Origin: Allacma fusca
Lineage: Eukaryota > Arthropoda > Collembola > Symphypleona > Sminthuridae
Length of the DNA stretch: 64,000 nucleotides
Assembly (NCBI GenBank): GCA_947179485.1
Contig: OX359247.1
Location: 56,765,131 to 56,829,130 of the forward strand
Reading direction: 5' to 3'
Under the pieces are notes generated by a model. The model saw only the letters and a program-made list of their open reading frames with translations, was not told where the DNA came from and made no database searches. Both the position numbers and the translations under genes were made by a program. How positions within the stretch are numbered: position 1 is the stretch's first letter; every line of letters starts with the position of its first letter. Positions 2,745-52,701 of the stretch are shown here, one piece after another.

Positions 2745-2752
2745 AACATTAA

Positions 2753-3426
2753 CAGTGCTCTCAATTTTACTCATTACTCGAATTTTTTATAAAGTGAGTA
2801 AGTGAGTATTGTACTTACTCGTACTCACATCTGCGAGTATGAGTAAGTAATGAGTAAGTAATTTTAAAAAGGTTGATGTTTAAGTAAGTAAAGAGTAAGT
2901 ACGAACACTCATTCCCCGGTGTAATGTAAGTAATGAGTAAGTAAGACGAACTGCAAAGTATCAAAAAGTAAGTATTGAGTAAGTAAACTCTTCTTTACTG
3001 GAGTAACTACCATAGAAAAAATGTTCTCCGACAATATCCATGACTTATATATGGTTTATGGAGGCAGATAACACAGGCCATAGGCAAACAATGCCTTTAA
3101 ATACTTGCGACGATGCAAATCGTTAAACTTGAGTCGTTGACTACACTACCAAAGATGGCAGTGACTTGGATTATATTTGAAAATGAGTAAGTATTACTTG
3201 AGTACTATGCAGCAAAAGTAAGTAAAGAGTAAGTAATATCAGCTTATTTTTGCGAATAAGTAAGTAAAGAGTAAGTATTACACTGCGACCCGAAATTTTG
3301 AGGGAGTAAAGAGTAAGTAAGATAGCCACCATTAAGCCCCTGAGTAAGTAAAAAGTAAGTACTGGACATCATGAGAGACAAAATTATGAGTAAAGAGTAA
3401 GTAAGGGTGTCTAACTGAGAGCACTG
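2753..3426. mobile_element. non-autonomous hAT-like element, word GAGTAAGTAA
   Basis: A 674-bp element. Both ends begin CAGTGCTCTCA when read inward (11 identical bases), fitting YARNG. It is flanked by a perfect 8-bp duplication AACATTAA at 2745-2752 and 3427-3434. The interior is dominated by GAGTAAGTAA/TAAGTAATGAG words, in the opposite orientation (ACTTACTCGTACTCA) close to the left end. A short unique core lies at about 3000-3180. No transposase frame exists, so it must have been moved in trans. The boundaries are firm; assignment to hAT rests on the 8-bp duplication and the terminal consensus. Confidence 0.9.
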
Positions 3427-3434
3427 AACATTAA

Positions 3435-4160
3435 TAATAATGTGGCAGTGTGAGGTAACGATAAGGATTCAATGTCAGGTGCAAATGTATGCGCATTTAG
3501 TATTATTTTGCTGGTAATCATAATCAATGTGTGACATTGCCAATATTGTTAGCCACTTGCCTTTTTTCCGATACAAATCTATAAAAACGTTAAAACATGC
3601 TAATTTTCCAGATGGCTCTAATATATTCCGCTAATGAAAATTGAAATAGGAAAAGAATATGCGTAATTACATATTTTCCGACTATCTGTACTTCACCATG
3701 TATTAATGCATACACATCGGATGTACTCACCACGAAAACGGAAATGTATTTCATAATTGTAATAATAAATCTAATGTAATATTCGGCGATTACACATTTA
3801 TATTTAGTTCTAATTTTTAAGGGCGTGTTAATGCGGTACTTAATGTTCAAAGTTTCTGGGATTTCGGCACTACTGTATACTTACCAGGAGGAATGTTTGT
3901 ATTCGAAAACTCAAAAAATTGTTTTAATTAATTTCCATAATATGAGATGACATACGGTTAACCATCAGTCGAGTGCAAAATATGGAGATACTTCCAAGGA
4001 TGGCAAAAATGATTACTCTTCAATAAAAAACGAAATAATAAATTATTAAAATGAGCAAAGGAACATTTTTAGCGACCAATTAAAATACGTAATCAATATT
4101 TCACAACAGACCATATTAAACTTATCAAAATTTACTCTATGCGATCGCTTATTAAGTGAC
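3435..4160. other. protease upstream region
   Basis: AT-rich sequence between the GAGTAAGTAA element and the protease promoter. No repeats or coding signal that I can support; an 86-codon minus-strand frame at 3590-3850 has no recognisable content. Confidence 0.45.
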
Positions 4161-4169
4161 TGAAAATAG

Positions 4170-5513: not shown

Positions 5514-5519
5514 CACTAA

Positions 5520-10466: not shown

Positions 10467-11886
10467 TAGTGGTCGGATCGATTCAATTTGATTCGAATTT
10501 TTCAATTTGATTCAATTTGAAGCTTGAATTGAATCGAAAAACCGATTTTCGATTCAATTTGCCCCAAAGCAATTCAATTCGATTCAATTCACTCAGTGAA
10601 TCGAATTGAATCGTAAATCGAACGATTCAATTGGGAAAATACAAAATTTTCCTTATGTTACTGGAGTGTCGTATACATATTATAAAGGGTATAGTAAAAG
10701 CTAGGGATTGTCGATTTGAAAATGCCATGGCATATTGGGCATCATGCCTGCCCAAAATGCCCTGGCATTTTGGGCATTTTCAACTTTGGGCAAATACGTA
10801 GATTTTGGGCATATTCGGCACGGGCATTTTGGGCTTTTTGATTCCTGGGCATATTCGGCATTTTGGGCATATTCAGTTCAAATATTCGGGTCGATTAACC
10901 TTTCCAGACGTTATTGGTCGCTACTACTTCCACTTCCTACTACTGCACACTACCCCGCTCACATCGTTATAACTAAAAACGATTACTCGACGGTTTTAGC
11001 ACACAGGTAAATAAATCTGGCGAGTAGACAATTGTAGGGGTTGTTGTTTTTAAAACGTCTAACCATTGTTACTACTGGACAAAACTCATATTTTGGAATC
11101 CAATAAACTATGACAACCTCGAATCACTGGTCAGAAAATTTGAGAAATTTTATTTACGCTGGAGGCGGAGCAACTGATACAGAGGATGAAAGTTATACAA
11201 ATCAAAGTTCTGATGGGGAGGATTTTTGATGACGTATTTATCACTCAAGTCTTCTGATTAACTTTATACAAAATGCAACAAAATTGCATTCGTCAATAAT
11301 TCAATACAAAGTGTCTGTATGATACACAGCGAGTATCTTTTGAAATATAATACATTTAAACAAAATTGCCATGTACGCCTTTCATAGGATTTCATTTTAA
11401 TAGTGAATAGTGGAATTTTTGGCATTTTTGGAATATTCCCGGCTGAAAATGAAAACAATGTCGAATATGCCCAAAATGCCGAATATGCCCTGCCGAAAAT
11501 GCCCAAATTCAGGGCATTTTCCCAATGTGCCAATATGCCCAAAAATATGGCACGTTGGCGGGCACTTTGGGCATATTCAGCTTGGCAGGCATTTATGCGA
11601 GGGCATTTTCAATCGACATTCCCTAGTAAAAGCTACGCTAAAATAACAAACGTTGTGGTATAAATAGAATTTGGACTTGCGGAAAAAAAGTACCCGTGCG
11701 CAGCCGAAGCGGTTTTGATGAATTGTTTGGATTGCAATTCACATGATATGATTCGATTCAGTTCAGTACCCAAATCGAATCATTCGATTTGGTTTTGCTG
11801 CAAATCGAATCGAAATACTACTGAATCGAATTGAATCGAATCGAATCGAAAATTTCCAATTCTGAATTGAATTGGTCCGACCACTA
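10467..11886. mobile_element. non-autonomous hAT-like element, word GATTCAATT
   Basis: A 1420-bp composite bounded by an exact 8-bp duplication GTGTACAG (10459-10466 and 11887-11894; it fits nTnnnnAn). Both ends read TAGTGGTCGGA inward, followed by YCRATTCAATT. The element's own sequence is about 490 bp, packed with GATTCAATT/GAATTGAATC words in both orientations. A second element (10702-11625) has inserted into it. The termini are shared with the element at 21384-21892, but the word is different. No coding capacity. Confidence 0.92.
10702..11625. mobile_element. non-autonomous hAT-like element, word GGCATTTTGGGCAT (copy 1, nested)
   Basis: A 924-bp element inserted into the GATTCAATT element with an exact 8-bp duplication GTAAAAGC (10694-10701, 11626-11633). 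Ends read TAGGGATTGTCGATTTGAAA and TAGGGAATGTCGATTGAAAA. Both flanks are built from ATGCCC/GGGCAT words; the middle, about 10890-11400, is ordinary unique sequence. A near-identical copy lies in inverse orientation at 18911-19834. Apparent open frames here are by-products of the repeated words. Confidence 0.93.
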
Positions 11887-12416: not shown

Positions 12417-13628
12417 CAGAGTTGCACAATTGAAAATGCCATGGCATTTTCGGCATTATGCCTGCCAAAAATGCCCTGGCATTTTGGACATTTTCATATA
12501 ATGGCATTTTGGGCATCTATGGCACTTTGGGCATCTATGGCACTTTGGGCATCTATGGCACTTTGGGCATCTATGGCACTTTGGGCATCTATGGCACTTT
12601 GGGCATCTATGGCACTTTGGGCATATTGAGCCTAGAGCAGGCATTTTCGGCATATTCGCTCCAATTTTTTAAATATAAAGCTTTAGCTACCTGGTAATTT
12701 TGCAAAATAAGTCACAAAACAGTATGTTGGAAATAATTTTAATATTCAACTGGATTACATGATAAAATTATAGAAATAAACGGATGAAACCTGGAGTAAG
12801 TTGACGTAGACATATTTATGGAAAAATAATAACTATTATTCTATTTTGCTTATTTTGTTGTAAAAATTCGCTTGAACACCGTGTCTGTAATTATTTAGAC
12901 TTCAAGAACAAACATATTCGGGCAAAGATGCAACACAAAAAGATAAAATAGTTGTTAAAAGATTAAAAATGTCTTTTTTGTGCGCTTCAAAACTCGTCAT
13001 CATCTACATATATGTATTTATTGTTACATTTTGGAATCCTAGAATTATTATACTGGTTTACTTGGCCTAATGCAATTTTCAAAGTCGACACAAAATTTGC
13101 TACGGAAGCTCCAAGTTTTGACATATATGATAACTTTCGCATCTTATGCATCTAATGAAAATGTAAAATTTTGTATACTTTACAAGCCATTATCAAAATA
13201 CGGAATTTATGCTGGCACTGTGCAAATTGTTCTTTCCAAATCCCGAAGTTTTTTATAATGTACAGCGTTGAATGTTTGCAACTCCGTTGGGGCTTAAATT
13301 TGTTTTAAGGATTATTGAAATAACCACTCGCCATAAGAACCGAATTAGACGAATTAAATTCTTTTTTTAAATCAACTATAACATTTTCTAAAACTGGATG
13401 GGTTTGATTATGCTATGAAAAACTCCCTTATATTCGCTAAAGGAGCAATAATGGTCATAGTGTATAAGTTTCTGTAAAAATGCCCAATATGCCCAAAACG
13501 CCTGCCGAAAATGCCCAAAATGCCGGGCATTTTCAGAGTAAGGCATTTTCAGGGCATTTTCGGCATTTTCAGGGCATTTTCAGGAGGGCAGGCATACAAC
13601 CTAGGGCATTTTCATTTCTGCAACCCTG
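12417..13628. mobile_element. non-autonomous hAT-like element, word GGCATTTT, different termini
   Basis: A 1212-bp element with exact 8-bp duplication CTTAGAAT (12409-12416, 13629-13636; fits nTnnnnAn). Ends read CAGAGTTGCACAATTGAAAA and CAGGGTTGCAGAAATGAAAA, matching at 21 of the first 24 positions. Subterminal blocks at 12435-12655 and 13478-13612 consist of ATGCCC/GGGCATTTTCGGC words like those of the 924-bp elements, yet the terminal bases belong to a different family. The core, about 12660-13470, is unique AT-rich sequence without a gene. Confidence 0.93.
12512..12621. repeat. 18-bp tandem array inside transposon
   Basis: Six copies of an 18-bp unit ATCTATGGCACTTTGGGC lie in the left subterminal block of the element at 12417. 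Because 18 is a multiple of three, the array stays open in several frames, which produces spurious protein-like repeats on both strands. Confidence 0.9.
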
Positions 13629-17283: not shown

Positions 17284-17857
17284 TAGAGCTTCCAATGTGG
17301 TCAACATTTGTGTTCCGTAAGGAATTCCGTTCCGTTCCGAAACCTACAAATAATATTGTTCCCGATACAGTTCCATATGTCGGGGCAACGGAACATTTTA
17401 ATCTAAATCATTCGGAACAAACAAGTAAAGTTCTGTTTCCGTCAGAGTTTGTGTTTTGTTCCGGAATATGTTAACTTTTCTGTTCCGAAGCAACCCGGAA
17501 TTTTTCGCGATATATACATTATATGCAAATTATACTATATGAGACCTAGACACACCTTAACATAGAATGGCAATCACTAATTGAAACAGCTAGTTTTACT
17601 ACTCAGAACCGCACGTCAGAAATCGTGCAGGGATCGGAACGGGACAGAATAATTCCGAGTTCCGATGACATAAATTATGTTTGGCATTTTCCGTGCCGAT
17701 GATAACAGCCGTCCCGGTCGCAACATCGTCAGTACAACAGAACATTGTTCCGGTTTTGTTCCGATTCAATTACGAAACCAAACAAATGCCCCGAAAATGT
17801 TCCGTTCCATTTCCGAACACGGAACTTCGTGATTTCGGAAACCCGTAGGAAGCTCTA
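17284..17857. mobile_element. non-autonomous hAT-like element, word GGAACGGAAC / GTTCCGTTCCG
   Basis: A 574-bp element with perfect 8-bp duplication ATACAAAT (17276-17283, 17858-17865; fits nTnnnnAn). Both ends read TAGAGCTTCC inward. The interior is rich in GTTCCG/CGGAAC words (TTCCGTTCCGTTCCG, CGGAACATTTT, GTTCCGGTTTTGTTCCG). No coding capacity. Confidence 0.9.
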
Positions 17858-18910: not shown

Positions 18911-19834
18911 TAGGGAATGTCGATTGAAAATGCCCTCGCATAAATGCCTGCCAAGCTGAATATGCCCAAAGTGCCCGCCAACGTGCCATATTTTTGGGCA
19001 TATTGGCACATTGGGAAAATGCCCTGAATTTGGGCATTTTCGGCAGGGCATATTCGGCATTTTGGGCATATTCGACATTGTTTTCATTTTCAGCCGGGAA
19101 TATTCCAAAAATGCCAAAAATTCCACTATTCACTATTAAAATGAAATCCTATGAAAGGCGTACATGGCAATTTTGTTTAAATGTATTATATTTCAAAAGA
19201 TACTCGCTGTGTATCATACAGACACTTTGTATTGAATTATTGACGAATGCAATTTTGTTGCATTTTGTATAAAGTTAATCAGAAGACTTGAGTGATAAAT
19301 ACGTCATCAAAAATCCTCCCCATCAGAACTTTGATTTGTATAACTTTCATCCTCTGTATCAGTTGCTCCGCCTCCAGCGTAAATAAAATTTCTCAAATTT
19401 TCTGACCAGTGATTCGAGGTTGTCATAGTTTATTGCATTCCAAAATATGAGTTTTGTCCAGTAGTAACAATGGTTAGACGTTTTAAAAACAACAACCCCT
19501 ACAATTGTCTACTCGCCAGATTTATTTACCTGTGTGCTAAAACCGTCGAGTAATCGTTTTTAGTTATAACGATGTGAGCGGGGTAGTGTGCAGTAGTAGG
19601 AAGTGGAAGTAGTAGCGACCAATAACGTCTGGAAAGGTTAATCGACCCGAATATTTGAACTGAATATGCCCAAAATGCCGAATATGCCCAGGAATCAAAA
19701 TGCCCAAAATGCCCGTGCCGAATATGCCCAAAATCTACGTGTTTGCCCAAAGTTGAAAATGCCCAAAATGCCAGGGCATTTTGGGCAGGCATGATGCCCA
19801 ATATGCCATGGCATTTTCAAATCGACAATCCCTA
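18911..19834. mobile_element. non-autonomous hAT-like element, word GGCATTTTGGGCAT (copy 2, inverted)
   Basis: A 924-bp element, the same length as the copy at 10702-11625 and in opposite orientation, with an exact 8-bp duplication ACAATATG (18903-18910, 19835-19842). I noticed only a few substitutions against copy 1 over the aligned regions I compared, including the non-word core. This implies recent movement of both from the same source. No coding capacity. Confidence 0.95.
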
Positions 19835-20657: not shown

Positions 20658-22374
20658 GTTGGATGTAGTGCCCCTCATGGGTAAAAAAATCCTGTACCTG
20701 GACCAGTTCCTGGACCCATATAACGGGTACTCTAAATTTTGTACATTTACTCTGGAGCATAGTACTCGAGTGCAACTTTATACTAGAGTTTGAACTCAAG
20801 TGCGACTGGAGATTCAAATATGCATTTCCTTTTTCCTATTTCTATCTATGTTCAACTTGAAATTCAAATATGATCTGTGGTTTGGAACTTAAGCTTGAAC
20901 TCAAGCATAACTTAAATATAATTTGAACTTATGTACTTAGATGTAGTTTCAGAAAGTTATTGTATTTATTATAAATTGTATCTAGATCATTGTGCGTTTA
21001 AAATATTCACACTTTTTTCAATTTGTCTTGGTGAAACTGCATGTAGAACATTTTGTAGCAATACGAAAATATACGCCGATAATTTTGCGTCTGTGCCAAC
21101 AATTTATACTGTATGTCAGTTAACTTGCAATAACTATTTCCAGTTGCAATTGTATCCACGTTATTTTGCAATTGCCTTACCAACTGCAAGTAACTCATGA
21201 ACTGATTGCAAGTTCAACTTCGGTTATTTACTAATTGACTCAGTTTAGCAAGTACAGTTACGACATTACTAGTACTTGTATTATAAATTATAGTAAGGGT
21301 AAAGGTTCAGGTTCAGGTACACAGAAAAACCCGTTTTGATTTTACCTGTTAGGACCAGGTCTAACAAATGAAAGACCTGAACCTAGTGGTCGGACCAGTT
21401 CAGTTTGGTTCGCAAAATTCAGTTTAGTTCGGTTCACAAAGTAAACTGAATCGAAAATCAAAATTTCAGTTCAGTTAGCTATTCTTCGGTTCAGTTCAGT
21501 CCAGTTTCCTCTGTGAACTGAACTGAACTGATTCCAAAACAGTTCAACGCGCCAGGTTAAAACTATAACGTAAATAGTTTCCGTTTTGGTAAGTACAATA
21601 TATATAATATATGTTTGTACATACATATAAGATATGTTCTTATATATGTATAAATATATAGCACGGCAAATGCAACCGTCAAAAATGAGAAGTGCGTCAT
21701 GACAGAAACAGGCTTTATTGTGCATGCATAAAAATCAGTTCAAACAATTCAGTTCAGTTCAGTTTGACGCTGAAACCGAACCATTCAGTTTGGTTTGTGT
21801 ATCGAACTGAACCAAAATTTGTATGAACCAAAATGAACTGAACTGAACTGAACTGAAATTTTCAGTTTTGAACTGAACTGGTCCGACCACTACCTGAACC
21901 TGATCGCAAAAGACCTGAAATGTTTGGGTTCATTGATTTAAAGTTAAAAGCCGTAGAATTTCAAGCTTGCAAGATGATTTCCATCGAAAAAGCAATGGTA
22001 GGGTGTCCCAGGAACCACTGAACAGGCATTCTTATTCATTTTAAATATATTTTGTACTGCAAATATCCAATCGTACTTTAAACACAAGATAAAATAGTAG
22101 AAACGTTATGATTCTCAAATACCCAAAACATGTTCAGGTCCGGTCCAAAACTACCCGGGTTCAGGTCGTCTTGGGTACTTTTTCGGGTTCAGGTACTAAT
22201 CAGGTGCGGGCACTACAAAAACGCAATTCGGTCAGGTTCAGGATCAAAAAATTTGTACCTGTTAAATGGGTACATTTTCAGGTACAGGTTCACACTTTTG
22301 AGGTACACAAAGTTTGGGTCCAGGTCCAGGAACAGGTTCGACTGTTTTGAACCCATGCGATGCACTAAATCCAA
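20658..22374. mobile_element. hAT-like element, word GGTTCAGGTAC, with unusual flanks
   Basis: The inverted ends read TAGTGCCCCTCATGGGT (from 20666) and TAGTGCATCGCATGGGT (from 22367), fitting YARNG. Subterminal blocks at 20690-20730, 21300-21383, 21893-21930 and 22130-22345 carry GGTTCAGGT/ACCTGGACC words. Instead of a direct 8-bp duplication, the flanks are complementary (GTTGGATG left, AATCCAAC right), so the inverted repeat extends to GTTGGAT and the true boundary is uncertain. A second element (21384-21892) has inserted within it, exactly at one of its CCTGAACC words. Confidence 0.7.
21384..21892. mobile_element. non-autonomous hAT-like element, word AGTTCAGTT (nested)
   Basis: A 509-bp element with exact 8-bp duplication CCTGAACC (21376-21383, 21893-21900). 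Both ends read TAGTGGTCGGACCAGTTCAG inward. The left and right thirds are built of AGTTCAGTT/AACTGAACTG words; the core (about 21550-21730) is AT-rich. The first 13 bases are those of the element at 10467, whose word is GATTCAATT instead. No coding capacity. Confidence 0.94.
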
Positions 22375-22431: not shown

Positions 22432-24072
22432 CAGTGCTGCCCTAGTCTAGTCCGACTAGACTAGGAAACTAGGGAATTGAATAGAATAGGCCAGATGTAG
22501 GAGCAAATTGAATAGACTAGACTTGAATAACCTTGCTGCAAATTAAAAAGGAATAGAATAGACTAGAATAGTCAGAATGTTAACATAGAGGGAATAGACT
22601 AGAATTGACTAGTGCGATAGCACTATTCCCTCGTCTAAGGAGGACTGTGAGCTTTTCAAATGCACTATGGGCACAATCAAACATACGACTAAAATTTGCG
22701 TTTATCAAGTAGGAATCCGTTTCCTATTTTGTCAGTTCTGCCTACTTATGTAATGTATGTCAGAAACACATTGCGGTGCTGTACTATTTCTTTTTATATG
22801 AAAATTCTTCTCACACTTGCCATTTCATTAAATACTTAGTTAGCGTTTATTCTGGCACTTTTAACCAAATTATCCTTATTACCAATTTATCCAACTTTCA
22901 TCAGGATCCCCTTACACCCTTTGATTTAACCAGAACTTTAACAAAAAACTAGATTTTCGTTACACGATCGGAGTTCGGGGATTTCAAGACTGATGTGTGG
23001 GAGTAACAAGAGACAAGATTTTTAAAATTAATTTCCCCCCAAAACGCGGAGAAATCCCCCCACATTTGCGAAACGTATTTCACGATTAAAGCTAATCTGT
23101 CGCCAATTGCCATTAAAACCACATCAGTTTCTTGCACGCCAGCAGTAATTTTCAAAAAAGATCTGAACTTAAGAATCCTCCGTCGAATTTTTTAAACCCA
23201 AAGACGAAAAAATTGAGTAACGCAGATCCCAAGCCACAGCCATTATGAAGTACCAGTCATTTTTTGAGCAATAAGCTTCATTTTCTCCAACCTTAAATCG
23301 AATGTCTTACATTAGGTCAAATAGTCCTCACAGAATAGTTCGCTCATGAGCATTAAACGAGAACGTTATCCTTCCTTGTACTGCTATGCTTGCTCGTCCC
23401 GTCCCGTTATACGTACGACCAAAAAGCGTGTCCCGCCCCGAGTACAGTAGTAACTGAAATTAGCTAAGACAAGTAGCACTTTCAATATACTTTTGCTGAG
23501 CTAATAAGGAAAAGAGCACACTGGAGTTTTCTGAGCTACAATTTTAGGTTTAAGTTCCAGAGAATTCCATTTTTGCAACGTGTTAAATAATAATAATTTA
23601 TTTTTTTGTTAAATATTGACGTGCGAAAGAGTGACTTATTTGATATGTTGCAACGTACTTTTAAAATATTATTTTGATTGTGAGGTTTTTTATATTATAA
23701 ACTTCATGTGAATACCGGGTAGGTATACGTTTTGTTCCTGTTCCCAAACCCGCTTTTGTTCCTATATTTTGGGAACAATTTCTATGTTCCCAAACGTTTC
23801 CAAAACTTGTTTGTTCCCGTACGCACCCATTCCTGTTCCTGTTCCCAAAAACCTGGGTGTCTCCTGTTACCATGGACAGCACTAGTTGTGGTGTATAATG
23901 AATAGGTGAATAGACTTGGAATAGACTAGGATTTTTTTGACTTGGAGGGAATTGGAATAGACTAGAATAGCCAAGTCACAAGGAGAAATGAATAGAATAG
24001 GAATAGAATAGTACAGCTTGAGTACGTGGTGGACTAGAATTGACTAGACTAGAAAGTAAACGGGCAGCACTG
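22432..24072. mobile_element. non-autonomous hAT-like element, word GACTAGAATAGA
   Basis: A 1641-bp composite with exact 8-bp duplication ACCAGGCT (22424-22431, 24073-24080). Both ends read CAGTGCTGCCC inward. Subterminal blocks at 22440-22640 and 23900-24055 carry GACTAGACTAGG/GGAATAGACTAGAATAG words. The interior includes patches from other word families: a CGTCCCG patch near 23395-23445 and a GTTCCC patch at 23690-23884. No transposase frame. Confidence 0.92.
23690..23884. mobile_element. one-ended fragment, word GTTCCC, inside the GACTAG element
   Basis: Rich in GTTCCTGTTCCCAAAC words. The right edge CCATGGACAGCACTA reads TAGTGCTGTCCATGG inward, fitting YARNG. The left terminus and target-site duplication were not found, so this is a partial copy of another word family. 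Confidence 0.4.
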
Positions 24073-24422: not shown

Positions 24423-24651
24423 GATGTGAGTAAGGCTTCCATCCGACCGGATAAATCGAATATCCGATCCGAATCCGATCCGAACCGAAATTTTCGGAAA
24501 ATTTTTCTTATTATCCGACCTGACCGTTACGGATCGGATAAAAATTTTATTCATCCGTATCCGATCCGACCCACGGATATCCGAAATTATCCAAATTGAT
24601 ACCATTGGGTGATGAAAAAAGTATTAGGAATTTTCACTGCAAAAATGCATT

Positions 24652-25454
24652 AGCTTTTTACTACACCACAATATTAATCATTTTTGCATACATTACGTAC
24701 ACACCAGTGGTCGTCACGGGAACGGGTAAAACCCGGGTACATGGGAACGGGAACGAGTACAGGAACGGGTACGGGAACAAATATTTTGTTCCCAGCCAAT
24801 TTGGGTACGGGAACGGGAACACACTCAGGTGGACCCGATCACCGGGAACAGGAGTGGGAACAGGAACAGAGATTTTCAATTTGTTCCCGTTCCCATCGGG
24901 AACGGGTACGGTCTACGCATGATCCCGTTCCCATACCTGTTGTTCCCGGGATCGAGTGGGTACTTTTACTGTCTTCTAGGAACACACTCAAATATGATCT
25001 TGGAAGACTTATTAATAGTATTTATGTAAACAATTCAATTTGCATATTCCATTGTATTCTTTTGTTCCTGCAATTTCTACACACATATCCTTGCCTTAAA
25101 GATAAAAATGTTAGAACTCCTTTTTCAGTACAAATGAGGTATTTTCTAGAATAATTCTACAAATTTATTATAATAAATATTGAAATAATTATTATTAGTT
25201 CATTCTTTTTTTTTGCAAGTTTTACTCTTGAAAAATTGATTGCTCGAATTAATGCTTTTCAAATAAGACTAACAAAGGAAAACTAATCCGTGCTGGCATA
25301 TATTTTTCAGTGTGTGTATGCAGAAAATTATCTATGGGCCAACAATGATCTTAAATATTAAGTACCGTTTTGAAATCCTCATCAGCATTCAATTTTTTAT
25401 TGTTGGAGAAGCAACATCACTGATCCATTCGTTGTTGCATCTTTTCCCAGTATG
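24652..25454. repeat. left copy of ~800-bp direct duplication flanking the LINE
   Basis: These 803 bp recur as 30336-31143 (808 bp). The only differences I see are a 6-bp GGAACA insertion in the right copy and one base in a T-run. The unit begins at AGCTTTTTAC, outside the GGGAACGGG element, includes that element's 8-bp target site and its left 750 bp, and ends at CCCAGTATG exactly where the LINE begins. It therefore duplicates this locus, not another copy of the element. Confidence 0.93.
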
Positions 25455-25695
25455 ATAGTGGAGGAGCTGGATGGAAGGAGCTCCAGAAATAAGCTCCAGC
25501 ATCAGGAACACATGAACTAGTGTCAAGTGTAGTGTATCAGCTCTTATTCAGTGTCAATAAAAGCAGAATTTTGCGTTTATTGAGTGGACAATCAAGAAAA
25601 TTTACATTTTTTTTGTTCCACGTGAAATCCGAAAAATATTGTGAAATTTGTGAAATTGCACAGAGGTGAAGGGGAAACCCTTGAAAAGCCTCGTT

Positions 25696-26826: not shown

Positions 26827-29800
26827 TGCATTTCAAAATACATACTCACAATATACAAGGGCTCGTAAACCCAAAGAAACAGACAGAACTAAAAAAGTAT
26901 CTCCATATAACTCAACCAGAAATATTATGTCTCCAAGAAACCAACTATGACCCACGAATACACACATTTAAAAATGTCAAAAACTATTCAACATACTTTA
27001 ACACAAAAATACAAGCATGCAGTGGCACGTGTGTCATAATCAAGAAACCAATGGCGAGACTAGACAGGATTTACATGAGTTCCGATATCCAGCATCTTAT
27101 TACTAATGTAAAAATTATGCCTTTTCTCAGTGATCATGCAACATACCAAGTAATGTTAAAACTCCAAATCGAAAATGGAAAAAGGGCTATATGGAAGTTT
27201 GACAACAGTCTTTTAAAAAGTGATGAATTTATATGTCATTTGAATAGAAAGTTTGACACATTTCTAGCTAAAGACCTAAAATCAATTGATGATTATGAAA
27301 TCCTAGGGAGTGACATAAAAACGTGCTCCATTTCATTTAGAAATTATTTTGAAAGACAACTCCAACAATGTATAAACAGACTGTGTCAACAGTACCAAAC
27401 AGCTATTGTGAGTGCTAAAACCAACTCAAAAGATTTGTATGAAACTTTCTCCAAAGATTTTCTTGTGCAAGAAAAACTATGTGATGCCATCCACAAAATA
27501 CCTGAGCAAAAAATGGAAGTCTCTATTGGAGATGCGCTTGCTAATTTCACTGTAACTGAAAGACTTAAACACGTCAAAGATTTCTTTAAAAATAAGTATC
27601 GACCATCTGAAACAATACCCATGAGAATTGAACACTACCTTAAAGAACTTCCTGAAATAAGTAATGAGATCCGTGAAAAACTCAATTGTGATTTTAGCGA
27701 GGAGGAATTTGATAAAGCCATTTCATGTCTCCAGAACAACAAAAGCCCGGGAGTTGATGGACTGACCTCAGAATTTTTCAAAGCATTCAAAGAAAAATAC
27801 ACCAAGGTTGTGTACTGGCTACATAATGAAAGTTTGAAGAATGGAATGCTACCCAAATCTACGCGACTAGGGTGCATTTCTCTTATTCACAAGAAAGGCA
27901 ACCCGCAAGACTTACGCAACTGGAGACCTATAACCCTGTGCAACACAGACTACAAAGTGATTTCACTTGTGATCAAAAATCGTATCGCTCCAGTGTTATC
28001 TCATGTTGTTGGACAATATCAAACGTGTAACATAGCAGGACGAACTATTTTTGATAACTTATCATTTATAAGAGACGCATTTGATAACACAACAGATGGA
28101 GCATTAATATCACTAGATCAGGAGGCTGCGTTCGATAATGTCAACAGGTTCTATATGTTAAAAGTGCTACAAAAATTTGGTTTCCCTGAAAAAATCTGCG
28201 CTACAGTGAGTCTAATGTACATGTTGAATAAAGTCATTGTAAAAGTGGGAATTTCTCTAACAGTAAGTATAGAAGTGTCACGAGGTATAAAGCAGGGAGA
28301 CCCAATTGCGTCAATAATCTACGTTTTGTGTGCAGAACCATATTTGAGGAGTATGAACAATAAGCTAACTGAATCAGGGAAAAGCCCCGTCACCAATTAT
28401 CCAAAAACTTTCTTGAGTGCTTTCGCTGATGACACTCATATATTTGTAAGCTCCTCAGAACAAATCAGTATTGTTGAAAATGAAACATCGCTTTACTTAA
28501 AAAACTCGGGCGGGAAATTAAATAGGTTAAAGTGTTCCGTATACCTCTTTGGCACCTGGACACAATCCTCTCCTGTAATTAATTTTCCTAGATTTGGGCA
28601 TATACTTTGGAAAGCCAAACTATATGCTACAAAACTGGGAAACCTTACTCTCAAAGGCAAAAGCCAAGATTAGTTACTACGAAACCAAATACACTGAGGC
28701 AAATCTCTTTACGAAATCCGTAATTCTCAATACTTTTGTGTTATCTTTGATGTGGTTCACACTGAAAACATTAGACCCTCCTAAAGAATTTATTGATGAA
28801 ATGCATGAACTAATTAATAATTACCTGTGGGGAAAGAGAAGAAAACTTGTTAAACAACTTTTTGTTTTCTTACCACATAGCAGCGGTGGACTTGGTGTCA
28901 AGGACATACTTGTTCAAACGTCCATATTTAGACTTCGATTTGTTAATATACTAGTAAATGCTTGTAACGAAAACTATTTTCTTGGACATGCCTCCAGAAC
29001 TGTTAAGGAGATAATTGCGAGTCATAAAAAACAATCTCTTAACAATTTCTACGAAAATATATTTAATGTTATTGGTGATTCAAAAGTTTGTTTTCTCCAA
29101 GCAAACGAGGATTTGCTGAATACGATAAAAACTACTAACCGTAACTACATTAGTGAATCAAATGGTACATTTATTCAGAGCTTAGGGTATCACCACCTTT
29201 TTAGCGTAAATGAAATAAAACCCTCAGACGAAATGATATCTAGTGTCAAAATGAGAAGACTCAACAAATTAAGAGCTGAAATATCGTCCATAAACATTAC
29301 ACGCCACGAAAATAATTTATTATCAGTTTTCCACCCAATTAGCAAGCAATACGTGAGTCTCAAAGACCGAAATTTCCAAACCGCGTTAGTTCTCAACCAA
29401 CACGTACCAAGCCAGCAAATAATCAAAAAGATAACAAATTTTAAGTGGCAAAATCTTAGACCCTGTCTATCATCTCAAGAAAAACTAGTCACATGGAGAA
29501 TATGGCACGGAGCAGCTCTAACTCCTAACTTGGCCTTCCACATGGGTATGATTGAAACATCGGATTGTCCATTCTGCTTGAAGAAGAATCCGCAAGTAAC
29601 TCATTTTCTCTACTGCAACTACTTTGAGGACATCTGGATATTTATCAAAAGCATAGTACAGAAGAAATTCCCGATGAAAATGAAGCATAGGATACATGGA
29701 CCAGAGAAATGGAGCTGTTTTAATCACTTTATATATGCAGCACACCAATTAATTTTCCAAGAGTTATACCTCTATATTAATGGTCTAAATATAACGAAAA

Positions 29801-29970
29801 CTCCACTACTCAAATATAAGCAGAAAATTTATGAGTTACTCTACGGAGATTTCCAAAGACATGTACTTGCTATGGGCTTAAAACTAGGCTCTTTGAAATT
29901 CCATGTTTATTGGTTGGATGCTGAATTCTTATTTAAACTAACGGATGTGAGCATAGATATACGGCTCTAA
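26826..29970 (+). pseudogene. LINE ORF2: endonuclease (deleted core), reverse transcriptase, C-terminal zinc motif; frameshifted
   Basis: The first segment (26826-28673) starts with AP-endonuclease motifs (HNIQGL, CLQET), then jumps from CVIIKK directly to RLDRIYMS and SDHATY, so roughly 100 residues including the GDFN motif are missing in frame. RT follows: NNKSPGVDGL, NWRPITL, SLDQEAAFDNVN, GIKQGDPIAS, AFADDTHIF. Near 28580-28594 the frame changes and continues to 29970 as the thumb/C-terminal region (NWETLLSKAKAKI, SLMWFTLKTL), with a zf-RVT-like motif (WRIWHGAAL, CPFC, HFLYC). Without the frameshift and deletion the protein would be of ordinary LINE length. The enzyme would nick target DNA and reverse-transcribe LINE RNA; this copy cannot do so. 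Confidence 0.88.
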
Positions 29971-30335
29971 TGACAAAATACGTTCTGAGCGCATTCTATA
30001 AATTACATCGCATCCAAAGTGCAAATGCAAAATACTTCACATGAGTATCCCTCCCAAAGTCAATAAAAATGCACTTTATTACGACAGAAGTGATAACCAG
30101 ACTGCTCGTCTAGCTGGGAGAATTCGGCCACTCCTGTAATCCATTAGCCGTGAAGCTTACGAGTGTGGATGGGTAAACTTACAGATTCATAAGATAATGC
30201 GAATGTCCAACCTTAAACAGAGAAAATCATAGACGCCAAAATCCCAAAGGCGTCAAATTTTGTAATGAAACGATCAAGTCACTAAAACAATATTTCTGCA
30301 ACAACTTTAAATAAAGATAATATGATGGAAAAAAA

Positions 30336-31143
30336 AGCTTTTTACTACACCACAATATTAATCATTTTTGCATACATTACGTACACACCAGTGGTCGTCA
30401 CGGGAACGGGTAAAACCCGGGTACATGGGAACGGGAACGAGTACAGGAACGGGTACGGGAACAAATATTTTGTTCCCAGCCAATTTGGGTACGGGAACGG
30501 GAACACACTCAGGTGGACCCGATCACCGGGAACAGGAACAGGAGTGGGAACAGGAACAGAGATTTTCAATTTGTTCCCGTTCCCATCGGGAACGGGTACG
30601 GTCTACGCATGATCCCGTTCCCATACCTGTTGTTCCCGGGATCGAGTGGGTACTTTTACTGTCTTCTAGGAACACACTCAAATATGATCTTGGAAGACTT
30701 ATTAATAGTATTTATGTAAACAATTCAATTTGCATATTCCATTGTATTCTTTTGTTCCTGCAATTTCTACACACATATCCTTGCCTTAAAGATAAAAATG
30801 TTAGAACTCCTTTTTCAGTACAAATGAGGTATTTTCTAGAATAATTCTACAAATTTATTATAATAAATATTGAAATAATTATTATTAGTTCATTCTTTTT
30901 TTTGCAAGTTTTACTCTTGAAAAATTGATTGCTCGAATTAATGCTTTTCAAATAAGACTAACAAAGGAAAACTAATCCGTGCTGGCATATATTTTTCAGT
31001 GTGTGTATGCAGAAAATTATCTATGGGCCAACAATGATCTTAAATATTAAGTACCGTTTTGAAATCCTCATCAGCATTCAATTTTTTATTGTTGGAGAAG
31101 CAACATCACTGATCCATTCGTTGTTGCATCTTTTCCCAGTATG
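30336..31143. repeat. right copy of ~800-bp direct duplication flanking the LINE
   Basis: Partner of 24652-25454. It begins immediately after the LINE A-run and runs without a break into the remaining part of the GGGAACGGG element at 31144, showing that this copy is contiguous with the original locus. The extra GGAACA hexamer falls in a GGAACAGGAACAGG word and is explained by slippage. Confidence 0.93.
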
Positions 31144-31966
31144 GCATTTTAAAGTGTTGAAATTTGTTATACTCGGTATATAATCTCTGAAGATTTAAAC
31201 AATTAGTTATGTTTGCTATAGGGATGCGTTTAGCCGCCCTGCACATTGTCTGATTATAACTTCAAAACGAAGGGTTTGGTAATTAAAAAAATTAATGATA
31301 ATTTTTACCACAACTAAGTACAACACGACCTGGACCCGGGAACGGGACCGGGAACACTAGCTGTGGGAACGGGTACGGGTCCAGAACATTTTAAATTTCT
31401 GGGTACGGGAACAGGAACAGATCCGGGAACGAATTTTTATTAAATTCATGGGAACGGGTACCTAAAATACTGTTCCCACCATCACGGGAACGGGTCCGGG
31501 TACGGGAACACTTAAGGGGAGTACCCATTCTGTGGGAACAGGAACGGGAACGGGAACAAACTTTTTGTACCCATGACGACCACTGGTACACACTGAAGAG
31601 AAACTTTACAAGCACCGCTGTAAAAAAGCACAGAATTAATAAGAAAACACGTAAAAAGCGGCACAGTTACTTCTTGGGCAAATTGTTGTTGCGCACTTCG
31701 TTCTTATTGGTCGCTCGAACGCGATAAAAATTTGATTTTCGGATTGTCGGATTATCCGATATTTATTATTCGTGATCCGAACCGATCGGATAAATTCGTT
31801 TGCAAATCCAAACCGATCCGAATCCGATGACCGGATAAGGGGTACGTATCCGATCCGATCGGATTGTGTTCGGATCGGATAAGTAGTGTATCCGATCCGA
31901 AATTTCGGATATCCAATCTTCGGATATCCGCGGATCATCCGATCGGACGGAAGTCTTAGATGTGAG

Positions 31967-34417: not shown

Positions 34418-37014
34418 CGTTGTCCGGATAAGAGTCCTGCCATCAATGAGAGTTGAGAGTTCAGAGGATGTTTCCTGTCACAGAAAAAGAGTAAATCATG
34501 TTGAGGTTGAATAATAATAGGGTCACTCCCTAAAAGTTGAGTAAACAGGGGAAACCAATGTTGACCAGGCCAGAAAGGCACAATCATGACACCTACAGCT
34601 TTATCAGATATAATCTTTTGCAAAATACGAGGAATCATATTGAAAGGTGGGAAACAATAGAAATTTAAGTTCGTCCACTGTACTGTAAAAGCATCCACTC
34701 TCCAACAGAAAGGGTCGGGCTTCCACGAAATGTACTTTGGAAGTTTCGCGTTTAAATAACTAGCGAACAAATCAACTTCAAAGTGGAAAGGTAAAACAAA
34801 ATCTCGAATTTTATAAAATGCCGCATCGCATAGCTCCCACTCAGTCTCAAAATTAGTCGAACGTGATTCTGCATCCGCTTCAAAGTTTTGAGCCGATAGA
34901 ATATACGACGCGTATATGTGAATATCTCTTTTTTCGCAAAACTTCCAAATGTCTCGTGCCAAATCATTCAAGACTGGATATTTGGTCCCCCAAACCTATT
35001 TATATACGAAATAGCTGTCGTATTGTCTATTCGCATAAGTACTCGACAGTTGTAGAGTGATTTAGCAAACGTACGAAGACCGTAAAAAGCAGCGGTAATC
35101 TCCAAGAAATTAATACTCATTTGAGTTTGTTTAACGCTCCAGAAACCACTTGTTCTGTTTCCGTCGCAAAACGCTCCCCAACCCGATTTTGAAGCATCTG
35201 TGAAGATCTCCAGCTCAAAATTATCTCGGAGAATACGATATCCCACGTTAGTATTGATTGAACCATACCACCATGCTAGATCTGATCTACATTCCTGGCT
35301 CAGGCGAATTCTGGAATCGAAGTTGTTTCCAAGTGTCAAGGAAAATGTTTTAAAATGTTCAAGACGCTTCGTATATAACATTCCATAAGGAACGGCGGGA
35401 CAACAAGAAATCAAAGTGCCAATTATTTTGGCCAAATGTCTAATCGTAAGTGAGTTGGCCTTTAAACCAGTAGAAACAGTAGAAGTTACTCCTGCCTGTT
35501 TCTTTTCTGGGAGTGAGATAGTCATCGTACGCGAATTGAAGGTAAATCCCAAATACACAATTGACTGCTTAGGTAGCAGAATTGATTTCTTATAATTTAC
35601 TACGAGACCCAATCTTTCGAAAAAATCGCGTGTTTGATATTGGCTAGGCAAGTTGAATAGGATCTACCCAAAAGGAGAGAGTCATCAAGGTAAATACAAT
35701 TTTCGAAGCCTTGAGAACGTAGATATCGAATTGGTTCTTTTAAAACCTTTGTAAATATTCTGGGAGCAATGTTCAGTCCGAAACAGAGGCAATTAAATTC
35801 GTACAAGATTCCTTGCCAAGTAAATCTCAAATACTTTTGGTGACTTTCATGAATGGGGATAAGAAAATAAGCATCCTTTAAGTCAATAGAGCCCATAAAA
35901 CATCCTGGGGTGAGCAAACTTCGGGCAGAACGAAAATCTTCCATCTTAAAGTGTGGGCATGAAATAAAAGTATTTAAATGGGTGAGGTTGATAATAAATC
36001 TGTATCCACCTGATGATTTCGGGACCAAAAATATATTGGAGATTCGCCTTGAACGTGTTTGCACGTCCTGATTGCTCCTTTAACCAACAGATCCTGTACA
36101 GCTAACTGCATTTGAATTTGATCGGGTTGGTACCAGTGCTCGGCACGGGTACGAAAAATCGGTACCCGTACCCGTATCCGTACCCGAAGTGCGGGTATTT
36201 CAATAACTGGTATCTATACCCGTACCCATACCCGAATATCCGGGTACAAATTTTTCGTACCCGTACCCGCAATGTTATGTCAATCCATGTACCTGTACCC
36301 GCATTGTACCCGTACCCGAAAATACTCGAAAATTGTACCCATACTCGGGTATCTCAGTGTCGTACCCGTACTCGTACCCGGGTACTTTATCCAGATTTTT
36401 TTTAATGTAATACGTAGTACGTTATATGTAATAATGTATGACACCTGAGTGGGTAATTTTGACTAGCTAGAGAGGTATTTGACATTATATATTTTATTGA
36501 AGAGTAGAGCGTTTTTGATTAGAAGTAAAATTATCCCCATTTGATTGTTTATGGGCTGATGGGCGAAGTATTTTATACCACCCAGTCCATATGTACATGC
36601 ATTTTTGGCTTAGGACTTGGCGACTCGATTTTTCACTTCTTGATTTATTCGGCCTTTTACATTAATTTTCTCATCTCAGTAGCTCTGTGTACATGTTAAT
36701 CATTAATATCTTGTTACAAATATCCGCCTTTTCCTAATCAACTACTAATTACAAAAAAATATCTTGCCATCCAACTCATCGGAACTATAATTTTTAAATT
36801 GTATTCATTGTGGCTAATGAAGTATCATGTGCATACGTGTCAATCAGACTATTTATGCAATTAGTAACAAATTACTACATTATGAAGACGTTTTGTATAA
36901 ACTTTTGTTGAATCCTATTCTCCACTTCTATTTTGATATTAATCCTCGCCTGTTTATTAATTATTCTTCCTAAAACCTGTTTCCATAAATATATTATAGA
37001 TAGATATTATATAT

Positions 37015-37369
37015 CGTCGCTGAAGAGGCAAAATGGACAAAGTGCAATTTCAACTAGAAGCAAAATGGTCTACATGCCTTTTTCCTTAAAGGCAAAACGG
37101 AATAGTTGCAAGCTTTCCTGAAAGCAAAATGAACTACATGCAGTTTTCATTAAAAGCAAAATGGTCTACTTACAATTTCGCTTTAAAGCAGAATTGCCAT
37201 TAAGTATACACGCATGTAGACCATTTTGCTTTTAGACGAAATTGCACTTAGTCCATTTTGCTTTTAAAACTTGATGTATCTATTCCATTTTGCATTTAGT
37301 AAAACTGCATGTAGACCATTTTGATTTTAATCGAAAATGCATGTATTCCATTTTGCCTCTTCAGCGACG
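37015..37369. mobile_element. foldback/MITE-like element, word GCAAAATGGTCTACATGC
   Basis: A 355-bp inverted-repeat unit. Both ends read CGTCGCTGAAGAGGCAAAAT inward, and the interior repeats AGCAAAATGGTCTACATGCA in direct orientation on the left and inverted on the right, so the whole unit can fold on itself. Flanks are AT-microsatellite (TTATATAT and ATATATAT), so a duplication cannot be judged. Its ends do not fit YARNG, so it may be another superfamily. Confidence 0.65.
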
Positions 37370-37545
37370 ATATATATAGATATTTATATTATATATATAT
37401 ATATATTATAGATTATATATTATAGATATAAATATATATTATATATACATATATATTATAGATTATATATTATAGATATAAATATATATTATATATACAT
37501 ATATATTATAGATTATATATTATAGATATAAATATATATTTTAGC
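37370..37545. repeat. AT-rich tandem array, period about 50 bp
   Basis: About three copies of a unit built of ATATATATTATAGATTATATATTATAGATAT-type sequence, directly following the foldback element. Probably slippage expansion of an AT microsatellite at the insertion site. Confidence 0.7.
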
Positions 37546-38122
37546 AACACAGTCTGAAATACAGTTACTGCATGTTGTAAGGTTAAAAGGGTATTAACAA
37601 TAAGCTATATGTATTCAGAATTACTAAAAATACCGACAGAATTTTCCAACGGAAGATCCATTATTTTCATAAAATTCATCAAAATGTCTCAAATCTCAAC
37701 ATATCCAAATACTCGGGTACAATGGTCGCGGGTACGGGTAAATGACACCATTATACCCGTACCCGGTGGGTATATACCCATTTTGAAATCCTTGTACCCG
37801 TACCCATACCCGTATCCGTACCCGAAATTTTGAGCCGACCAAAGTGTACCTGGGTAGTACCCGTAATTGTTCGGGTACACAAAATCCGTACCCGGGTAGT
37901 ACCCATACCCGTACCCATACCCGTTTACCCGAGTATTACCCATACCCGTGCCGAGCACTGGTTGGTACAGAGATATACTTCGAGGAGGAAAAGGTTGAGA
38001 TGGTATTTTGCGGAAAGGTATTTTAAACCCCTTATTTGCTGCCAAGACTATTTTGTCGGAAGTAATTTTCTCCCAAGCCTGGTAAAAATACTGTAACCGA
38101 CCAACAAGACGTACCTTTGAAG

Positions 38123-49200: not shown

Positions 49201-51494
49201 CTTAAGTAACAGCGGAGCACAGCTCATGTAATGGATAGGAGAAGTCCGCATTACCCAGTAATTGCATGTGATTGTATTGCAGTACATATATACTTTTGCT
49301 TCGAGACAGATATACATACGTGGTTTTGTCCTGAACTCTAAAGTGCATACATGTTTGTGTACATAGTGAGCTTTACGCCTATGCAAGTATGTATGTATTG
49401 GAGGGATACAGATTTTAAGTTTTGTTTTTATTACCTTACAAAACTACAGCATACTACTAAATTTTAGTATTAGTGGATGTGGGAAAAGGCTTCCTTCTCC
49501 ACTTTGCATAATGTGTCCATGTGTAGTCGGCTTTTTGTACAGAACTGCGCTAAAGCTCCCATATAGTTTCCTTCCTATGGTGTACTTACAGAATATTGTA
49601 GAGCGTTTTAGTAGTATTTTAACAACCATTGCAAATATCAAGGTTATTGCCTTCTTCCAAAGTCCTGTAGCGTTCTCTCTTTCCTTTCTCACTTTGTCTC
49701 AGCTCCGTCACCGGATTTTCGACTAGGTGATTTCGTAGCCCCTACTTATAAGATACGTATGTATACACCATGTACTGTGCACATGCGGAGATCTATGTCC
49801 CCCATCAAAGTCCCTGCGAATTCATTTTGTTTGATTGTCAGTATATATACTACTAAACTACTAGATACACAAACGCTATATTGTACTCTGCCCATTGATT
49901 TCCCATGCTTAGTAATCTATGGCAATAATACAAATCCTCAAAGTACATAATAGCTTTTAAAGTGCCCTATGAGAAATTCCACCGTCCTTAATGGTCCAAT
50001 CATAATTCATAAGGAAATGTAATACTGGATCTGGAATTGCGATGTTAAATGAAATCAATTAGAAGAAATTACAAAGATGAGGACTCCTGGAACTTTGTAT
50101 CTAAATACATGTGTTCAATTTACAAGCACGCAGGGATACTGCATTGTAAGTGCTTCCTTCCCGAAAGCCGTCTAAAAGCTTCAAAACTTGATGCTTATAA
50201 GGACAGAATGTACCATGGGGGTTAAAAAGGGAATGCTCCTCGAAGGAAAAACAGTGGAATGAGTGGACAGTATTGCTATCCTTATTGTTAGTTATATCTC
50301 TGAATAAGACGGTTTATGTAATCGTATAAGATGGGATAGGAACCAAATAATCCGCTTACAATTCACTAACTATGAAATGAAAATCCTATTTAGAGACCAC
50401 AACAGAGAGACTGTCCACCCGTCCTTTAAGGACATGCCCAGAGACAACTATAGTCGGAGTATCTTTGAGGAGGAAAAAATAACATTGTAATGATTGCGAA
50501 AATATGTAATTATTACATCTCTTGCAGAATGGACATATGTCATTCTATCCAAATGTGGTTGAATGGATGTAGTAAATGCTCTAATGAGAGGGTCTGCAAT
50601 CGCTAGAATCTACAGTATTTACATTGACATTGTCCATTAATATATATATAGGTTATGTGGCAGATTTGCATATGTGTAGCTATGACATGAAACATGAGAA
50701 AATTAGAGATTAAAATACTGGAAATGATATCTTACAACACGTAATAGTAATTAGGTGTAATTATATCTATATGTATGTACATACATCGCATGTCACATTG
50801 TGAAAGCTCTGTTCCAATGCTACAATTGGTGGAAACTTGAAATGTTCATACATATGTTTAAATGAGAAGCTCGGAAGAGTAAAATGATAGCTCACACAGC
50901 ACGTTGACAGTTCTTGTTCAATGAGTTTTAAAGCACAGAGCACAACGAAGCGGGTAACGACGTTAAGTGTAAACTTTTACAGCCGCTGATTATTGGAGTC
51001 AAATTTGTTATAATACATGAGTATATACCTATACGTACATATAATGTCGAGGGTATATGTATCCATGTATTAAACTGTCATGAAAATACTGTGGGGCATT
51101 GCATTTCCGGCCTTCTCTATTTTTATCTCATCCTGCGGCTTCCTTCAACGTTCAATGTTATACTAGAGAGCATTCTCGTGTAAGTATTTACAAGTATATA
51201 CGCAGAGATTGCAGACGAAAGCTTGAAAATAAAGTGTGCAGAAATAAAATGATATGTTATTGCAAGTACTGCAGTAGTACGGAAATTACTGCCGAAGTCT
51301 TATCCTCTCTTTGCTCAAATTCTGAATGTACACGTCACCTGAGTTAAAGTAGCGTGTGTGGGGTAAATTTAATTCAATTATATCCAGGATCTTATTAGCC
51401 TGTTTTTTCTGGATCAGTGTATACAAAAGCACTGGTCTCCCTCCAGTAATATAATATGACATGTAAGGTAGACATTTTTGATGACGAAATCAAG
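46252..51494. other. 5.2-kb gene-poor stretch
   Basis: I see no convincing gene, RNA or repeat. Frames at 46950-47231, 47332-47652, 47777-48028 and 49444-49726 (both strands) lack domains, splice context or codon structure that would support them. Possibly intronic or regulatory sequence of a gene outside the window. Confidence 0.4.
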
Positions 51495-51502
51495 CTAGTA
51501 GG

Positions 51503-52693
51503 CAGGGATGTCAATTTCCAATTTTGTGATTACAATTAACGATTAACGATTACTTCGAAAACAAAATGAATTTATAATTACAATTAATGATTAATGGGCT
51601 TATAACTAATAATTAATAATAACGATTAACGATTACTTTAAAAATATTATTCACTGATGATTACAATTAACGATTACTTTAGAAATAATTTTCACTGATG
51701 ATTACAATTAACGATTACTTTAGAAATAATTTTCACTGATGATTACAATTAACGATTACTTTAGAAATAATTTTCACTGATGATTACAATTAACGATTAC
51801 TTTGAAAATATTATTCACTGATGATTACAATTAACGATTACTTTAAAAATAATTTTCCGTGTTGATTACAATTAACGATTACTTTAGAAATAATTTTCAC
51901 TGATGATTACAATTAACGATTACTTCGAAAATAATTTTCATTGATGATTTCAATTAACGATTACTTTAAAAATAATTTTCATTGATGATTGCAATTAACG
52001 ATTAACGATTATTTTGAAAATTAATTAATTGAGGATTGCAATTAACAATGTAATGTGGGTATTTAGATACTGCTTGCATTTATCATTTTAATAAGCTAAC
52101 TTGTACAAAGGGTGAGACGAGGAGTTCAGGATTCTGTTCATGTAGTGTAAACTGCTCTGATCGTAAACAGAGTGTATTATATCCTTTATATTATCAGCCA
52201 GATACACCGGACACTGCTTAGTAAAAACTTCTTCGAACCCTAGACTGCTTAGAATTTTGGAGACGTCGCCAGCCCGATAATTGATGATTACAATTGATAA
52301 TTGATTTTTGAAAACGGCTAATTGATGATTACAATTGATAATTGATTTTTGAAAACGGCTAATTGATGATTACAAATGATAATTGATTTTTGAAAACGGC
52401 TAATTGATGATTACAATTGATAATTGATTTTTGAAAACGGTAAATTGATGATTACAATTGACGATTGATTTTTGAAAAAGGTTAATTGATGATTACATTT
52501 GATGATTGATTTTTGAAAAAGGTTAATTGATGATTACAATTGATGATTGATTTTTGCAAAAAGGTTAATTGATGATTACAATTGATGATTATTTCAAACA
52601 ATCCAAGCTTACTAAATTAACGATTGATGATTAATAATTAGTAATCATTAATCGTTAATCATTAATCGTGATTATTAATCGTTGACATCCCTG
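51503..52693. mobile_element. non-autonomous hAT-like element, words ATTACAATTAACG / ATTACAATTGATAATTG
   Basis: A 1191-bp element with exact 8-bp duplication CTAGTAGG (51495-51502, 52694-52701). Both ends read CAGGGATGTCAA inward. The left array (51640-52030) and the right array (52275-52590) are both tandem with a 41-bp period but have different unit sequences. A unique core lies at about 52045-52275. Related by its first eight bases to the element at 44835. No coding capacity. Confidence 0.95.
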
Positions 52694-52701
52694 CTAGTAG
52701 G

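What the first reader, a model, noticed from the sequence alone, without database searches (positions are those of the whole stretch)
2745..52701. A community of non-autonomous hAT-like transposons, each filled with its own private repeated word
Thirteen elements here have perfect 8-bp target-site duplications and inverted ends fitting the hAT consensus YARNG (CAGTG, CAGGG, CAGAG, TAGTG, TAGGG, TAGAG, TAAGG). In each, the terminal 8-13 bp are followed by blocks of one short word in both orientations: GAGTAAGTAA, GATTCAATT, GGCATTTTGGGCAT, GTTCCG, AGTTCAGTT, GACTAGAATA, GATCCGATCC, GGGAACGGG, CCCGTACCC, GGATTAACGG, ATTACAATTAACG. At least five more fragments follow the pattern. Known hAT transposases bind short subterminal repeats (Ac binds AAACGG-type motifs), so the words may be transposase-binding sites that change in concert within each family. 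The pattern of one word per family, saturating the subterminal regions, is not one I know as a described system.
Basis: partly seen in the sequence, partly recalled or inferred. Interest (0 to 1): 0.92.

Follow-up and report, generated by a model that had tools for sequence, protein, structure and literature searches.

The report
Springtail hAT transposons with private words
In a springtail genome, many families of one kind of jumping gene each fill their ends with a short DNA word of their own, most likely the docking site of their own enzyme, and between some close relatives nearly every copy of the word differs by the same single letter.

Summary
The window is Allacma fusca (springtail) chromosome 3. 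In detail: 13 elements have perfect 8-bp TSDs and hAT-type inverted ends (0 in each of 20 shuffles), each with 13-33 copies of its own word in its terminal 2 x 250 bp, rare in most other families. One insertion has an exact empty site in 5 of 5 sibling copies. Many transposase-bearing hATs of this genome have the same anatomy, and some carry the ends and words of window families. Subterminal repeats bound by the transposase BED finger are a known hAT trait, so the kind is known. The new part is the switching: four sister families share a 13-bp TIR and array layout, but 30 of 32 words differ by the same letter (RGTTY versus RATTY), while 48% of non-word positions differ. Transposases found beside each word type differ, within the helix stretch GGTxSLKNH, only by Ser versus Ala, at a position that contacts bases in Hermes. 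I read this as BED-finger docking arrays rewritten as the finger changes. No binding was measured, the finger-word link rests on few families, two further word switches are weaker, and about half of the sampled transposase loci showed no clear array.

The parts
2753..3426 (.). E1: hAT-type non-autonomous element, TIR CAGTGCTCTCA, TSD AACATTAA, word AGTAAG (GAGTAAGTAA)
   Evidence: a transposase-bearing partner with both ends and its own TSD in L067+L050
10467..11886 (.). E2 (family A): TIR TAGTGGTCGGAYC, TSD GTGTACAG, word TTCRATTY; interrupted by E3
   Evidence: exact empty site for E3 in 5 of 5 sibling copies; transposase C5:514283 has the same end
10702..11625 (.). E3: TIR TAGGGAWTGTCG, TSD GTAAAAGC, word GGCATWTT; nested in E2
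12417..13628 (.). E4: ends CAGAGTTGCACA / CAGGGTTGCAGA, TSD CTTAGAAT, word GGCATWTT (as E3, different TIR)
17284..17857 (.). E5: TIR TAGAGCTTCC, TSD ATACAAAT, word GTTCCG
   Evidence: second copy in L009
18351..18528 (.). single end of an L031-type hAT, word AACGTTA
   Evidence: 92% identical to the end of L031; word clump
18911..19834 (.). E6: second copy of the E3 family, inverted, TSD ACAATATG
   Evidence: 921 of 924 identical to E3
21384..21892 (.). E7 (family B): TIR TAGTGGTCGGACC, TSD CCTGAACC, word TTCRGTTY; sits within a TTCAGG array
22432..24072 (.). E8: TIR CAGTGCTGCCC, TSD ACCAGGCT, words GACTA/GAATA
24431..31958 (.). E13: ends TAAGGCTTCCAT / TAAGACTTCCGT, TSD GATGTGAG, word ATCCGA (GATCCGATCC); hosts E9
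   Evidence: same word in transposase-bearing L068+L059
24705..31585 (.). E9: TIR CAGTGGTCGTCA, TSD GTACACAC, words GGGAAC/GGGTAC; interrupted by a LINE flanked by 0.8-kb direct repeats, so the start is doubled (also 30389)
36134..37960 (.). E10: TIR CAGTGCTCGGCA, TSD GTTGGTAC, word GGGTAC
   Evidence: further copies in L009, L018, L019
44835..46243 (.). E11: TIR CAGGGATGGGAA, TSD GTCATAAT, word GGATTA/GGATTG, partly in a 41-bp tandem array
51503..52693 (.). E12: TIR CAGGGATGTCAA, TSD CTAGTAGG, word GATTAM, partly in 41-bp tandem arrays

Best explanation
The 13 elements are non-autonomous hAT transposons. The word arrays are subterminal repeats: clustered docking sites for the BED zinc finger of each family's own transposase, which recognises its copies by a short word and assembles on the ends. 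Shown: TSDs, TIRs, private words, an exact empty site, transposase-bearing elements of the same genome with the same anatomy, and sister families that differ by one letter in nearly every word of homologous arrays. Inferred: that the finger binds the word; that a change at a base-contacting helix residue (Ser versus Ala at position 66, Hermes numbering) goes with RATTY versus RGTTY; and that elements whose words followed the changed finger were mobilised, until nearly the whole array had turned over.
For: 13 elements, private words; empty site 5 of 5; 513 + 560 exact ends, reversed control 0; 9 of 12 two-ended copies with perfect TSD; words at the ends of transposase-bearing elements; 30 of 32 words switched, non-word positions differ 75 of 156; same-word control keeps 30 of 32; words better conserved than the rest in 8 of 14 comparisons at uncorrected p<0.05; L029: BED finger, hAT dimerisation domain, Hermes matches; helix GGTSSLKNH versus GGTASLKNH for the A and B/C partners.
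Against: No binding data. In 6 of 14 comparisons words were not significantly better conserved, among them all three of E10. Only 10 of 20 one-kb 3' flanks of transposases had a strong non-tandem array, and 4 ten-kb stretches (L017, L022, L024, L025) had no clump, although L025 has nearly the finger of L011. The finger-word link is not clean: residue 66 varies (K, C, A) in three families with the same word GAAGG, and L064 (T67) and the A partner (S67) share RATTY. In Hermes, mutating sites in one end kept about 70% of activity, and its authors think binding of extra transposases inside the ends unlikely (PMC10368747, passages), so a need for saturation is not established. The A and B/C fingers also differ outside the helix stretch.
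Confidence: 0.8

Rival explanations
1. The words are microsatellite-like repeats that grew by slippage in unconstrained subterminal DNA, without binding function.
For: Some arrays are partly tandem (E11, E12: 41-bp units), and tandem steps of 4-6 bp are the commonest spacing in 7 of 11 word tests.
Against: Words stand in both orientations and at both ends, keep homologous positions between families while the rest diverges, and recur at the ends of transposase-bearing elements.
Confidence: 0.07
2. The one-letter switch is mutational (a C-to-T type process on one lineage) and not selected.
For: The B-to-A change is a transition at one position.
Against: Non-word G/C shows the same transition in 10 of 53 against 30 of 32 words; word position 1 changes in both directions, also A to G; the L027-L059 switch is a T/G transversion, though weaker.
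Confidence: 0.05
3. The words bind a host factor (chromatin or silencing protein), not the transposase.
For: hAT-derived BED host proteins with varied specificity exist elsewhere (PMC8097297, passages); some hAT-like frames here lack arrays, such as L022.
Against: A private word for each family, shared with transposase-bearing members, is not expected of one host factor.
Confidence: 0.06
4. Each sister family was founded once by a copy with an already different array (for example by exchange of ends), so there was no word-by-word turnover.
For: No mixed A-B pair among 26 convergent pairs that I counted in the first 100 rows.
Against: Whole-end exchange is unlikely: aligned arrays are 58-61% identical against 27% expected at random, so the arrays are homologous. 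A single founder that already had the changed words is not excluded; L074, with mixed words, could resemble an intermediate.
Confidence: 0.2

Closest known systems
Hermes (hAT of the house fly): BED finger and subterminal repeats (PMC10368747)
   Same: 8-bp TSD hAT; many short subterminal sites in both orientations; a BED finger reads them with one helix
   Different: A single element with one motif; here many families in one genome with private, denser words, and a one-letter switch between sisters
Tgf2/Tol2 and Herves (PMC4890040, PMC3143072); Ac and Tag1 are recalled and seen only in reference lists
   Same: Short subterminal repeats at both ends, bound through an N-terminal finger (Tgf2) or shown to bind transposase (Herves)
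   Different: No series of sister families with switched words was described in the passages I saw
CGGBP-type BED proteins from hATs (PMC8097297)
   Same: Diverse binding specificities of hAT-type BED domains; four hAT-encoded ones match their own subterminal regions
   Different: Mostly host proteins across species, measured on arrays; no aligned transposon ends with concerted change in the passages seen

Membership tests
hAT superfamily | 8-bp target-site duplication | tested here: met
   13 of 13 by construction of the scan, against 0 in each of 20 shuffles; independent: exact empty site in 5 of 5 siblings; 9 of 12 two-ended genome copies perfect, 2 with one mismatch, 1 none
hAT superfamily | Short TIR of YARNG type | tested here: met
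   All ends in the table fit except one TAAGA end of E13
hAT superfamily | Transposase with hAT dimerisation domain and BED finger | tested here: met
   Not in the window elements; in partners elsewhere: L029 has PF02892 and PF05699 over cut-off and matches Hermes; fingers of other partners are split by an intron and were read by eye
hAT superfamily | Subterminal repeats at both ends | tested here: met
hAT superfamily | Transposase binds the subterminal repeats | not testable with these tools
   No binding assay possible
Non-autonomous (MITE-like) hAT | No transposase inside, ends shared with a transposase-bearing element | tested here: met
   For E1, E2 and E7 partners with the same TIR and word were found; for E13 the same word but a partly different TIR; for the other window families none was identified. 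Of the 10 window frames scanned none matched a hAT family
Hermes-type BED recognition | Same word with same contact residues, changed word with changed residues | tested here: inconclusive
   Agrees for A versus B/C (S66/A66), L027 versus L059 (66 and 70) and the GAAGG trio at 67 and 70; does not agree at 66 in the trio, nor at 67 for L064 versus A. The numbering is inferred from the first zinc histidine

The most novel reading that the evidence does not exclude
A single residue of the BED reading helix (Ser66 versus Ala66) went with the rewriting, by one letter, of about 30 docking words at both transposon ends, so that one genome holds a radiation of transposon families kept apart by a lock-and-key word code; this natural series of finger-word pairs would let the BED recognition code be read from sequence.
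Probability: 0.4. Interest if true: 0.85.

Novelty: new variant of a known kind. Interest (0 to 1): 0.7.

Why it matters
How a DNA-binding protein and its many sites change specificity together is an open question in transposon and transcription-factor evolution. Here sister transposon families in one genome keep the array layout while nearly every word has moved by one letter, and transposases are found beside both words. That makes the question testable with a few finger domains and oligonucleotides, and offers a route to reading BED-finger specificity from sequence.

Tried and rejected
Rejected: that the words are chance; that the A/B difference is an exchange of whole ends (aligned arrays 0.58-0.61 identical against 0.27 at random); a general transition bias (10 of 53 non-word G/C). 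Rejected as overreach: that every hAT here has arrays. Of the 20 one-kb 3' flanks, 10 had a strong non-tandem array (score 7 or more), L060 a tandem one, L047, L065, L052 and L057 scored 6 (the last two with GAAATT), and L048, L049, L051, L056 and L061 scored 3-4; L075 showed none.

Led nowhere: a regular expression for unbroken BED fingers; word conservation in E10; genome-wide counts of family A ends (not completed) and of other window families (not completed). The search for Collembola hAT papers gave nothing on the subject (listing only).

Full report
Where it is. The desaturase at 58261-59442 is 100% identical to an Allacma fusca protein. The genome held has 392.7 Mb in 91 contigs and the window lies at C10:56765131-56829130; C10 has 66.08 Mb. 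The published assembly has 392.8 Mb and a chromosome 3 of 66.08 Mb (PMC10427803, passages); the search terms 'repeat' and 'transpos' had no hit in that paper's main text.

The observation. A scan for perfect 8-bp TSDs with hAT-type ends and at least 10 of 12 TIR matches gives 14 rows, which are 13 elements (E1-E13 in the parts list), against 0 in each of 20 shuffles. Each element has 13-33 copies of its own word in its terminal 2 x 250 bp and the others mostly 0-3 (exceptions E9/E10 and E11). Of 33 word clumps found de novo, 26 by my count overlap an element end. Words occur in both orientations; the commonest same-strand spacing is 4-6 bp in 7 of 11 word tests, but not for E3, E5, E11 and E12.

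They transpose. E2 carries E3. With E3 and one TSD left out, E2 matches five sibling copies at the junction, each with a single GTAAAAGC (5 of 5). E3 and E6 are 921 of 924 identical, with different TSDs. Of 12 two-ended genome copies with the E2/E7 TIR, 9 have perfect TSDs, 2 have one mismatch and 1 has none. The pattern TAGTGGTCGGAYCRNTTC occurs 513 + 560 times in the genome, its reversed control 0 times.

Transposase-bearing partners. The hAT dimerisation domain gives 150 scored hits, a lower bound. Of 20 ten-kb stretches around hits, 8 show a perfect TSD and a TIR pair around the transposase with repeated words (L011 and L014 are one family). Of 4 further ones, 3 do, two of them with one TSD mismatch. 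Of 20 one-kb 3' flanks, 10 have a strong non-tandem array. Of 6 short 3' flanks of L064-like transposases, 4 show a TIR with an array, 1 an array cut by the edge of the stretch, 1 none. L029 has a BED finger and a dimerisation domain and matches Hermes. Matches to the window: both ends of E1 (86% and 90%) lie on a 1,692-bp element with its own TSD, next to a hAT dimerisation hit; the family A (E2) end lies downstream of transposase C5:514283 (only that end was read); two RGTTY ends with the E7-type TIR flank transposase C1:57207940, 3,329 bp apart (TSD not read, and the copy has a stop and a frame shift); the E13 word lies on L068+L059, whose TIR shares TAAGG and little more with E13.

The concerted switch. 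Families A (E2), B (E7), C and D share the TIR TAGTGGTCGGAYC and homologous array positions (D by one end only). From B to A, 30 of 32 words have G changed to A at word position 2; positions 3 and 4 are kept in 63 of 64; non-word positions differ in 75 of 156. From C to A it is 31 of 33. As a control, B and C, which share the word, keep the letter in 30 of 32 while non-word positions differ in 49 of 156. The same transition is seen in 10 of 53 non-word G/C. In the first 100 rows I count 26 convergent pairs: 20 A, 4 B (one B end reads ATTTC) and 2 C, with no pair mixing A and B/C. B/C-type ends alone number 114 + 114 in the genome, reversed control 0; the matching count for A did not complete. 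Two further switches are weaker: from L027 to L059 the first letter of TATCC becomes G in 6 of 13 words at one end and 4 of 10 at the other (exactly GATCC in 5 and 2); from E8 to L063 the third letter of TATTC becomes G in 5 of 7 (the L063 end is degraded). The reverse also occurs: E3 and E4 share the word but not the TIR. Words were better conserved than the rest in 8 of 14 comparisons at uncorrected p<0.05; all three E10 comparisons showed no difference.

The finger. In Hermes all base-specific contacts come from S66, N67, R70, Q64 and main-chain atoms of R63 and T65 (PMC10368747, section 7). With the first zinc histidine of our fingers set to H71, a register supported by the L029-ZBED1 alignment, the stretches read: A partner GGTSSLKNH; B/C partner GGTASLKNH; L078 (transposase of L074, mixed words) GGTSNLKNH; L079 (transposase of L071, GTTTC words) GGTGSLKNH; L080 (transposase of L073, array cut, AATTC seen) GGTSSLKNH; L064 (RATTY) VSTLKNH. 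In this stretch the A and B/C fingers differ at residue 66 only; they differ elsewhere in the finger too. L027 and L059, with GGATA and GGATC words, differ at 66 and 70, and also at 69. The three GAAGG families keep N67 and R70 while 66 varies. This is a suggestive series and not a test.

Reading. The arrays are most likely docking sites of each family's own BED finger, as known for hATs in general. What goes beyond the known is the number of private words side by side in one genome and the near-complete one-letter switch over about 30 sites between sister families, with a transposase beside each word. The path is unseen: words may have followed a changed finger one by one, with a tolerant finger as a possible intermediate (L074/L078 mixes RATTY, RGTTY and RRTCC), or a rare rewritten copy may have founded each family.

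Noticed in passing
24652-25454 and 30336-31143: A LINE with reverse transcriptase (frames 25666-29970) is flanked by 0.8-kb direct repeats, 99.1% identical, that begin outside the hAT it sits in; either a very long target duplication or a local duplication.
   Followed up: partly
33458-36064 (- strand): Frames with a phage-integrase-type tyrosine recombinase domain next to reverse-transcriptase-like frames, perhaps a DIRS-type element (label recalled; one search shows only the integrase match).
   Followed up: no
10260-10331: A tRNA gene lies about 130 bp before E2.
   Followed up: no
41533-42342: A 36-bp satellite of about 22 copies, 98% matching.
   Followed up: no
L022 (G000:C5:29097200-29107000): A 566-aa open frame with a hAT dimerisation domain but no TSD/TIR pair and no word clumps in 10 kb; could be a domesticated hAT gene.
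   Followed up: no
L016 (2096-9685): One hAT with GACCA words encloses another with GAAGG words; finger pieces of both are present.
   Followed up: partly
4814-5194: A frame matching trypsin (PF00089, 62.5 bits).
   Followed up: no
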